This document shows positions 42,800 through 46,020 of a stretch of DNA of 64,000 nt, in pieces. The stretch lies in assembly GCA_013423385.1 (NCBI GenBank), contig BLZA01000016.1, positions 62,001-126,000 of the forward strand, read 5' to 3'. The translations under genes were made by a program, and so were the position numbers. Source of the DNA: Naganishia liquefaciens. Lineage: Eukaryota > Basidiomycota > Tremellomycetes > Filobasidiales > Filobasidiaceae. Under the pieces are notes generated by a model, which worked only from the letters and a program-made list of their open reading frames with translations, was not told where the DNA came from and did not search any database. Every line of letters starts with the position of its first letter. Position 1 is the stretch's first letter.

Positions 42800-45700
42800 C
42801 TAATTGATCTCGCCTAGCGAGCCGGGGTCACGTGACCGCAGGAAGCTCGCGAGAATACGCTGGTGAAGCTGCTGGTGTTGTGGACAGAGCGAGCTCTGCC
42901 GTAAGCCAACGTTGGTCGGCTGTGGACGGCTCGGCGAAAGTTTGCTGCGAGAAGCTTGACGAGCAGAGGGGGACGCAGATGGGCGTCTCCGTGATTCCGT
43001 GTCGAGTAGGGTCGACACCTGTTGATCTCTCGACAATTGTGCGCGTCGGACGCTAGACTTCCGAAAGCTCTGTCGGGTCAAATGGCAAATGGGACGAGTC
43101 TGCGAATGGTCTCCCGCTTCCTTTTGAGCCGACTTAGACGATTGTGACTGTCTTGTGAGTGGACTTTCCGAGACTTGCGCTTGTGATTGAAATAGGGTCA
43201 GGCTGTCTCGCAGGCTTTCGGAACCCTTCCGTTGGATGATCTGGCTTGTGCAGAGGGTACTGAGGGAAAAGTCGGACACCCTTGCCACCGCCTTTAGACG
43301 TCGCCATGGATCCTATTCAAGATGTCGCAGGTCAGTGGCGAATCAAGTCGCCGGACACAGAGCGTACCTTCAGGAATGGACAGATTTTGGCATGGAGCCA
43401 CCACTTGTCCGGTTCATAGCGAGTGTAAATGGTCGCACCTTTCCTCTTCCTTGACCGTGAATGTGTGTAGGGCCACGCAGAATCACCCATTCGGCACCAG
43501 CACTTGTAGTGAGTTGCGTCGTAGTCGGCAATGATCTTCTTGCTTAGTAGATCCTCGTAGAACGCCTGTTGGCTCAGTGTTCGGTCTGGGGACGGCAGGA
43601 AAGGCGAGTAATCAGGAGATGGCGTGCCGAAGACCCGAGCAAGTCGTCCGTCGCCTGATGACCTCGCCGCCACTTGTTCTTCGAGGGGAACTCCTTCGCT
43701 CGTGGCTACAGTGTTTTCCCCTTGGCCGGAAGTCTTGGGCTTTTCAAGCGGAAATTGCGGAAAGCGACGCATGGCCACACCGTCCTGACTGTACTCGGCC
43801 CATGGATCCTGCAGACGATGTGATTACTACGCTGTTTTACAGGTCGACACACCCGATGCTCACCAGGAGGAATTGACAGGTCTTGGCATGGGTCCACCAC
43901 TTGTGTGCTCTATACGTAAAGTCCTGCGTTCCGCTTCTTCTAGCCCGATCGACGTGCGTAATACTTTTGGGCAGATGACTTCCCTTTGGCGTTGTAGGCG
44001 ACATGGCACCAGCAGGAGAAGCGTTCTTCATCGAATCCGGCGATGATCTTCTTGGCTGCGAGGTCCTGGTAGAACTCTAGTCCTCTGAAAGTCCCGTCGA
44101 CGGGCGGCACCCAAAGCGAAGCTCGAGAGACCTCGTTTGTCGACACTTGGCCGCAATCGGCGGAAGATGACGACACGCGGGTCTCACCACCCGCCACTGG
44201 GAGCGCTGGCTTGATCAGCGGGAACCGGGGGTACTTCCTCGAATCTCCTGCTGTTGCTCCAGGGATCCGAGCCCACGGATCCTATAGGCGTAGCGATCAG
44301 GGACATTTTGAAAGAAGGAAACGAGGACGCGCACCTTGAGGAATTCACAGACCTGGGCATGAGTGTACCAATGCTGTATCGTGAAGGGCGTCCTTGTCCG
44401 CACCCCTCGGACGCTTCTTGAGCCAAGGTGTAAGATACTCAGCCTTACACAACCCCGGTCCGCCTTGGCAGCATGACGCCAGCACGAGAAACGCTGCTCA
44501 TCGTATCCGGCGATGATCTGTTTCTTTCGCAAGTCTTCATAGAACGCCTGGCCTTGCGAGGAGCGATCGATAATGGGCAGAAACGGCGAGTACTCGGGAA
44601 GGTCTACACCAAAATGTCTAGTTTTCGTGGAAAATTCCGCCGTCTGTTGTCCTGCGGCGCAAGAATTTTCTGGGATGGGGTCGACATCTTCACTTTGACG
44701 CGGTATGCTTGACTTTTTCAGTGGAAACTGAGGAAATTGTCGTGAAGGTACACCGTGCGAGGTTTGGATCGCCCAGGGATCCTGCAATGCTCAAGGTCAG
44801 CAGTGATCAGACGGGAAAGCAGAATGCATACCGTGAAGAACTTGCAAAACTTGGCGTGGCTGTACCACTTGTGCACTCTTTACAAATACTTTCCGCGAAT
44901 CTTCCCGTTGTTGTCCATTGGATCTGTATGCGAGAAACCGAGGCTGACCTCCTGACTACCGTTCGACTTTGCTACCTTGCACCAACACAGGAACCGGGTC
45001 TCATCATATCCGGGTATGATCCGTTTAGCTCGCAAGTCCTCAAAAAAGTCCTGTCCGCGAAGAGTTCGGTCGATGGGTGGCAGAAAAGGGGAATAAAGAG
45101 GGAGTTTAATCCTATAAGGCTCACTTCTGCCTTTGGTGGGTTCTCGATTGGAGCCGGAAGACTCCACCGGCTGACGTCGGAAAGGCTCGGCGGTAACGAT
45201 CAGTGACGCTTGGTCACAGAGATTGTGAACTTCTGGCGAGTATTCGGATTCGGAGTCGAAGGCAATTGAGGATTTCACCAACTGGCCTCGGGAACGAGTG
45301 GTAATAACGCTTCCTAACGCTCGGTAACAGGGTTCGCGAACGTCTGGCGTAGATTCAAATTCAGAGTCGGAGAGGCCGTCCGGCAAGTATGCTGATTCGC
45401 CGCCTGTACTGTGATCGTCGCCCGGCGAGTACTCGGATTCACGGTCGGAACAGTTGTCGGCATCAGAACCCGATCCATAGGCGCCGTTATCAGATTGCGT
45501 TTTCCTGCTCAGATTTCGACGCTGTACGAGAGAAATGCTCAGCCAATGTCTCCTTTCAACGTCACCATCAGGGTCAGCTGGTACTAACGCGTTCAATCTC
45601 TTTTCCCAGTCGCACCTCACTGCCCGCCGGCAAGGGATGTCGCCCTCCCCTCCTCTCGCTCATGCTGCCCGGTTTCTTGTTTGGATGTTCTATAGGCGCT

Positions 45701-46020
45701 CAATTTCGGGAGCCAAGTTCGGATGTAGCTTTCTCCACTGATTCAGCTTAGAGATATCAACATAAAGAATCAAGACTACTGCTTCTCGGGTCACTTACCT
45801 GGTCCGGATATCAAAGGTAAAATCGTGCGGCGTAGGTGCAGAGCTGTCGTGGGGATTGCGATGTTGACTAATTCGGTGGCAATAAGGCAGATACTGCCGG
45901 AAACTTCGACTCTTGCCCGCAGCGAGAATGCGCTCTACTTGCACGGCTGTTTTGATCTGACGTGTAAGATTGCTGGGAAATCGACAGTGATTGATCGGGT
46001 CCGCACAGCTGTCTGTCCGT
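42800..46020 (-). CDS. Multi-module protein with repeated CxC...HxxxC modules, possibly decaying
   Basis: No recognised family. Four full modules and the start of a fifth run 5' to 3' from about 45160 to 43280. Each linker exon opens with GATCC-TGG coding DPWA (44784, 44281, 43810 and a variant near 43312), then R-x-FPQFPL-x-K. After a variable stretch come YSPFLPxxDRT-x-GQxFYEDL and K(K/R)IIxGYDExRFxCWC. About 30 residues on is (K)WWxHAKxCxFL. Introns before and after the modules are phase 0. Module 2 has Arg for the second Cys. Module 1 has one in-frame stop before its HxxxC end, module 3 one change of frame there, and module 5 departs from the pattern after DPW. Upstream is a Ser/Glu-rich region with SESEYSP repeats (45200-45500) and weaker exons to about 46020. 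No start ATG could be fixed. The C-terminal 160 codons are Ser/Arg/Gln-rich. The CxC/HxxxC set could bind zinc. Confidence 0.5.

What the first reader, a model, noticed from the sequence alone, without database searches (positions are those of the whole stretch)
42800..46020. A tandem array of an unrecognised ~140-150-residue module with a CxC...HxxxC signature
Four modules in a row share DPWA, FPQFPL, YSPFLPxxDRT, FYEDLxxKKIIxGYDExRFxCWC and, about 30 residues later, WWxHAKxCxFL. I cannot place this in any known family. The paired CxC and HxxxC look like a metal site. The FY...C...W..HA..C.FL order loosely recalls BIR domains, but spacing (CxC, Hx3C) does not fit. One module has lost the second Cys, and two modules show an interrupted frame before the HxxxC end, so the gene is evolving fast or decaying.
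Basis: partly seen in the sequence, partly recalled or inferred. Interest (0 to 1): 0.85.

Follow-up and report, generated by a model that had tools for sequence, protein, structure and literature searches.

The report
Yeast orphan gene with tandem Cys/His modules
A deep-sea yeast, Naganishia liquefaciens, carries two genes built from a short, otherwise unknown protein module with a cysteine/histidine pattern that looks like a metal-binding site; one gene has it once and intact, the other has four partly worn copies in a row, and what the module does is not known.

Summary
On the minus strand, 43134-45663, four copies of one module lie in a row (17 to 34 SD above shuffles). The gene is already deposited as an unnamed hypothetical protein, NliqN6_2291 of Naganishia liquefaciens. 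A second gene on the same contig, NliqN6_2309, has one intact copy behind a coiled coil. It fixes the true unit: YSPFLP...CxC-x33-38-HxxxC-F, a 46-55 nt phase-0 intron, then DPWA...FPQFPL. The array probably grew by phase-0 exon duplication. Codon positions 1/2/3 agree in 66/64/40%, the mark of past selection on the protein. Searches found no further relative except one near-identical contig fragment. BIR is not reported by Pfam and its recalled spacing differs. The array is worn: TAA in module 1, a frame slip in module 3, CWC to CWR in module 2, a slip after module 4. The deposited model puts the TAA and the module 3 slip inside predicted introns and by-passes the last slip with another donor; two of these introns also remove HxxxC ends. 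Metal binding is inferred only; structure prediction failed (mean pLDDT 57.6 and 47.5). Most likely a lineage-restricted, zinc-finger-like intracellular binding module, intact in one gene, decaying in the other.

The parts
45589..45663 (-). Exon 1 in the deposited model NliqN6_2291 (MSERRGGRHPLPAGSEVRLGKEIER); a 67-nt intron 45522-45588 follows
   Evidence: Deposited protein P0003 mapped to DNA
45114..45521 (-). N-terminal region, Ser/Asp/Glu-rich, with a 34-residue repeat pair (45267-45368 and 45156-45257)
44883..45113 (-). Module 1 core, YSPFLP...FLCWCKVAK...GKYL
44880..44882 (-). In-frame TAA inside module 1, between CWC and HAKxC
44832..44879 (-). Module 1 end, RVHKWYSHAKFCKFFT; removed as part of an intron (44782-44948) in the deposited model
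44782..44831 (-). 50-nt intron implied by the repeat pattern, GTATGC...CTGAC...GCAG, phase 0
44335..44781 (-). Exon DPWA...FPQFPL (end of unit 1) plus complete module 2 core, with CWR in place of CWC
44282..44334 (-). 53-nt intron, phase 0
43864..44281 (-). Exon DPWA...YPRFPL (end of unit 2) plus module 3 core; 418 nt, so the frame changes; the deposited model bridges this with a 55-nt intron 43910-43964
43809..43863 (-). 55-nt intron, phase 0
43368..43808 (-). Exon DPWA...FPQFPL (end of unit 3) plus module 4 core, open over 147 aa with CWC and HAKIC; its HAK end is removed as part of intron 43313-43438 in the deposited model
43313..43367 (-). 55-nt intron implied by the repeat pattern, phase 0
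43134..43312 (-). Terminal piece, DPW then a 1-nt frame slip, then FPQYPL and the C-terminus of the deposited protein (stop 43134-43136)

Best explanation
The window gene and its paralog NliqN6_2309 encode intracellular proteins built on one lineage-restricted Cys/His module, which I take to be a zinc-finger-like unit: CxC, and HxxxC 33-38 residues later, hold a metal ion and so shape a small binding surface (inferred). The paralog carries one module behind a predicted coiled coil, so copies would be brought together by oligomerisation (inferred). The window gene instead strings modules in one chain, made by repeated duplication of a phase-0 intron-exon unit, which keeps frame each time (inferred from the anatomy). 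Both designs would give avidity for a repeated or multivalent partner, protein or nucleic acid (inferred). The array is now partly relaxed: one candidate ligand is lost and two or three units are broken or spliced short, while the paralog stays intact. Shown: repeats, shared phase-0 intron position, intact paralog frame, codon-position bias, lesions. Inferred: metal, partner, avidity, location.
For: Core similarity 17.5-33.9 SD above shuffles in 10 of 10 pairs; codon positions 1/2/3 identical in 66/64/40% of 714 codon pairs from 16 non-independent comparisons. Eleven of 40 columns invariant in 5 of 5 units in the ungapped CW-anchored block, incl. the first C and W; W, H, A, C, F invariant in 5 of 5 ends. 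All 4 Cys of the 286-aa paralog lie in the module. My three-exon model of the paralog equals the deposited protein over 286 of 286 residues. Intron at the same place and phase 0 in the paralog and after each of the four modules in the window gene. Helix 19-64 of the paralog, read as coiled coil, has block pLDDT 97-98 in its centre. Highest 19-residue hydropathy mean 0.38 and 0.53, no TM-like stretch.
Against: No structure: over the CxC to HxxxC stretch (residues 171-220) the paralog model has block pLDDT 51-65, and module 2 alone has mean 47.5. The second Cys is not invariant (CWR in module 2). Codon bias is uneven: third-position identity runs from 23 to 55% by pair, and M3-M4 gives 68/59/55; the 13-codon HxxxC ends show no clear third-position excess of change (sums over 4 partners, of 52: M1 33/35/25, M2 32/37/32, M3 36/33/36, M4 36/34/31, paralog 31/23/24). 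Nothing tests metal, partner, location or expression. Three frame lesions in one gene fit a pseudogene at least as well for this copy. Codon counts reflect the past, not the present.
Confidence: 0.45

Rival explanations
1. The window gene is a pseudogene of a formerly four-module protein. Only the paralog is functional. The deposited 668-aa model is in part an artefact: the predictor placed introns so as to avoid each lesion.
For: TAA in module 1, frame change in module 3, 1-nt slip after DPW in the terminal piece, CWC to CWR in module 2. In the deposited model intron 44782-44948 contains the TAA, intron 43910-43964 spans the loop where module 3 changes frame, and intron 43313-43438 uses another donor so that the terminal piece is read in the FPQYPL frame in spite of the slip; the first and last remove conserved ends that still carry their own GT donor. 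The assembly is from Illumina reads with some Sanger gap filling (PMC7679087, whole text), so repeated indel errors are unlikely (inference).
Against: Modules 2 and 4 are open over their whole exons; the four introns at module ends keep GT and AG; the annotation used RNA-seq from four libraries, so some of the odd introns may be real.
Confidence: 0.4
2. The gene is functional as deposited: lesions have been turned into introns (intronisation), leaving two half modules and two full ones.
For: Deposited frame is open over 668 aa; GT-AG borders at the four introns printed; RNA-seq was part of the annotation.
Against: A lesion can nearly always be bridged by some GT-AG pair (not counted here); module 3 donor GTATTA lacks G at +5; conserved HAKxC ends would be discarded in modules 1 and 4.
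Confidence: 0.2
3. A strongly diverged BIR domain.
For: Same loose order: helix, GY, C.C, then W..HA..C.FL; HAK and C.FL recall the BIR end (BIR consensus recalled, from no call).
Against: CxC and HxxxC with 33-38 residues between against Cx2C-x16-Hx6-C (recalled); PF00653 not reported at E<=10 for any module.
Confidence: 0.07
4. A copper- or heavy-metal-binding protein tied to the copper tolerance of strain N6.
For: Strain is heavy-metal tolerant and RNA-seq was made with and without 10 mM CuSO4; CxC is a common Cu(I) motif (recalled).
Against: Few Cys per module, no metallothionein-like clusters (4 Cys in the paralog, 15 in the deposited array protein); no expression data seen.
Confidence: 0.07

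Closest known systems
NliqN6_2309 (hypothetical protein, Naganishia liquefaciens)
   Same: Same module, same phase-0 intron before DPWA, same FPQFPL end
   Different: One copy only, N-terminal predicted coiled coil, basic C-terminal tail, no frame lesion
BIR domain (PF00653)
   Same: Loose order of GY, Cys pair, W..HA..C.FL
   Different: Ligand spacing (recalled for BIR), not reported by Pfam
C2HC/C2H2-type zinc fingers
   Same: H and C four residues apart (HxxxC) at a predicted helix after a predicted hairpin (low confidence)
   Different: CxC not Cx2-4C, 33-38 residues between the pairs, not reported by Pfam
Cysteine clusters of fungal KDZ transposases (CxC1-CxC6, recalled)
   Same: CxC motif, basidiomycetes
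   Different: Not reported by Pfam; no transposase among the four neighbouring ORFs that I scanned

Membership tests
BIR domain | Match to the Pfam BIR profile PF00653 | tested here: not met
   Not among families reported at E<=10 for the modules; HMMER filters can drop weak matches
BIR domain | Zinc ligands Cx2C-x16-Hx6-C (recalled) | tested here: not met
   Pair of positions CxC (CxR in module 2), then x33, x37 or x38, then HxxxC, in the 3 of 5 units whose frame runs through
BIR domain | BIR fold | tested here: inconclusive
Any known zinc-finger family in Pfam | Profile match above curated cut-off | tested here: not met
   None
Metal-binding module | Bound metal | not testable with these tools
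   Needs purified protein
Metal-binding module | Candidate ligands conserved in all copies | tested here: inconclusive
   First C of CxC 5 of 5, second C 4 of 5 (CWR in module 2), H and C of HxxxC 5 of 5 counting ends behind lesions
Functional tandem-repeat gene | Open frame through all copies | tested here: not met
   TAA in module 1, frame change in module 3, unless the deposited introns are used

The most novel reading that the evidence does not exclude
A new small metal-binding domain that arose, or diverged beyond recognition, in one genus of yeasts and exists in two architectures, coiled-coil single-copy and tandem array, with the array losing copies through frame lesions that are being turned into introns.
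Probability: 0.25. Interest if true: 0.6.

Novelty: new variant of a known kind. Interest (0 to 1): 0.42.

Why it matters
Lineage-restricted domains are usually dismissed as unknown. Here the genome holds an intact single-copy version on the same contig as a worn tandem array, so the module's borders, its likely exon-duplication mechanism and its decay can be read side by side, and metal binding can be tested on a fragment of about 110 residues. It may also show how automatic gene models can hide frame lesions behind introns.

Tried and rejected
Relatives: three protein-database searches. Module 4: 10 candidates, none at E<=10. Paralog: 696 candidates, 2 hits, itself and P0002. Exon-joined window gene, region 325-565: 1016 candidates, 1 hit, itself. 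P0002 (ENA, 864-base contig, source unnamed) matches the paralog's coiled-coil exon at 97% over 22% of the query and then reads on through the intron in another frame, so it is probably DNA of a near-identical strain and says little on conservation. I had no search left to check whether other Naganishia proteins are in that database; Naganishia genomes are in print (titles and abstract starts in a listing; e.g. N. friedmannii, 6251 protein coding genes), so the absence may mean fast evolution or poor coverage.

Bacterial/archaeal contigs with the core alignment (100 pattern matches, 0 confirmed), viral contigs (194, 0 confirmed), phage records with the paralog (none). Rfam and tRNA on the window: 0. 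Weak Pfam hits, all below cut-off: PF25609 on module 3 and, through it, the deposited protein (E 0.026 to 0.21), DUF6795 on the deposited protein (E 0.19), HOOK and Tex_central_region on the paralog's coil (E 0.061 and 0.067): taken as chance. PDB: mS59, E 0.4, over paralog residues 169-236, which is the module; it did not come back with the module profile, where only KKT4 appeared, E 0.32, over the coil. Not pursued.

A decayed coiled-coil exon upstream of module 1 (a resemblance by eye near 45700) was considered and dropped: blastn of the paralog against the locus gave only chance-level words there, and the deposited start is at 45663.

A 12- or 25-nt micro-intron to explain the TAA and the frame change was considered by eye and dropped as too short to splice.

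Literature: NliqN6_2291 is in no held paper; NliqN6_2309 was not searched. Searches on BIR in basidiomycetes, KDZ clusters, Naganishia orphan genes and copper listed nothing on this module; only titles and abstract starts were seen. The BRCA2 paper PMC10684384 was seen only as passages; the term NliqN6 does not occur in its main text.

Full report
Organism and gene. Database hits name the genome: the two proteins found are hypothetical proteins of Naganishia liquefaciens on a contig of 212,681 bases, the length of contig C8 that holds the window. The tags point to strain N6, a heavy-metal-tolerant deep-sea isolate; genome by Illumina reads with some Sanger gap filling, genes by FunGAP with four RNA-seq libraries (PMC7679087, whole text read). 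The window gene is NliqN6_2291, 668 aa in the deposited model, on the minus strand at 43134-45663, just upstream of a dihydroxy-acid dehydratase gene on the same strand.

The repeats are real. The four window cores and the paralog's core give 10 of 10 pairs at 17.5 to 33.9 standard deviations above shuffles. In an ungapped block of 40 columns anchored on CW, 11 are invariant in 5 of 5: P, D, F, D, L, K, I, I, D, C, W. The ends K/H/R-W-W/Y-x-H-A-x-x-C-x-F keep W, H, A, C and F in 5 of 5. A search of the 19.4 Mb genome with module 4 lists 7 stretches at E<=10, 5 in this gene and 2 in one gene about 54 kb away (the tool calls its counts lower bounds). A profile search of the genome was not made.

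The paralog fixes the unit. I spliced the second locus by hand to three exons with two phase-0 introns of 47 and 46 nt. The result equals the deposited NliqN6_2309 over 286 of 286 residues. It has a predicted coiled coil (helix 19-64, block pLDDT 97-98 in its centre), a linker, one module, then DPWA...FPQFPL and a basic tail. Its second intron lies between the HxxxC end and DPWA. The same place and phase is seen after each of the four modules of the window gene (introns of 50, 53, 55 and 55 nt). An exon with phase 0 on both sides can be duplicated without breaking the frame; this is the likely way the array grew (inference).

Selection. Over 16 comparisons (10 core pairs, 6 tail pairs; not independent; 714 codon pairs), codon positions 1, 2 and 3 agree in 66, 64 and 40%. 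That is the pattern of long selection on the protein. It is uneven: by pair the third position ranges from 23 to 55%, and the 13-codon HxxxC ends alone show no clear excess of third-position change. A 34-residue repeat pair in the N-terminal part has 68 of 102 identical bases spread evenly, 25/21/22 of 34 by position, as expected of a region under little constraint.

Lesions. Module 1 has an in-frame TAA at 44880-44882. Module 3's exon is 418 nt, one more than a multiple of three, and its frame changes in the loop. The terminal piece slips by one base after DPW. Module 2 reads CWR. Modules 2 and 4 are open over their exons. In the deposited model intron 44782-44948 contains the TAA, intron 43910-43964 spans the module 3 loop, and intron 43313-43438 uses another donor so that the terminal piece is read in the FPQYPL frame despite the slip. 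The first and last of these discard conserved HAKxC ends that keep their own GT donor. That looks more like a predictor avoiding stops than like ancestral gene structure, but RNA-seq entered the annotation and I could not see the reads, so intronisation stays possible.

Metal site. Arguments for: conserved CxC and HxxxC in copies that share 40-65% of residues in the aligned stretches; no hydrophobic, membrane-like stretch in either protein; all four cysteines of the paralog in the module. Against: the second Cys is lost in module 2, and no usable structure was predicted (mean pLDDT 57.6 and 47.5). The distance between the pairs is 33, 37 and 38 residues in the three units that read through.

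Known families. No Pfam or NCBIfam family reaches its cut-off and no PDB match is better than E 0.3. A planned comparison with the yeast's own BIR protein could not be run because the server did not answer (calls listed in Tried and rejected).

Relatives. No named relative outside this species was found in a protein database of 5.8 billion sequences, nor any in bacterial, archaeal or viral contigs. The protein searches depend on shared exact words and on length, so divergent orthologues in other Naganishia could be missed. Low third-position identity suggests the modules split long ago, which makes such orthologues likely (inference).

Verdict. A real, lineage-restricted module in two genes, one intact and one worn; zinc-finger-like function is the best guess. 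It is an orphan domain family worth one cheap RNA-seq mapping and one metal assay, not a new kind of system.

Noticed in passing
window 45156-45368, minus strand: A separate 34-residue repeat pair (DSE....P.V...C..A...V) in the N-terminal region of the same gene, 68 of 102 bases identical, evenly over codon positions; 0 of 2000 shuffles reached the protein score.
   Followed up: partly
window 43313-43438, 43910-43964, 44782-44948: Introns of the deposited model contain, span or by-pass frame lesions; possible intronisation or a gene-prediction artefact.
   Followed up: partly
L008:4002-4955 (contig C8:161501-162454): Intact single-module paralog NliqN6_2309 with predicted coiled coil, next to a TBC-domain Rab-GAP gene.
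   Followed up: yes
P0002 (ENA contig of 864 bases): Near-identical copy of the paralog's coiled-coil exon from an unnamed source, read through the intron in one frame.
   Followed up: partly
P0001 residues 169-236: Chance-level PDB match (E 0.4) of the module to mitoribosomal protein mS59 (7ane), not repeated by the module profile.
   Followed up: no
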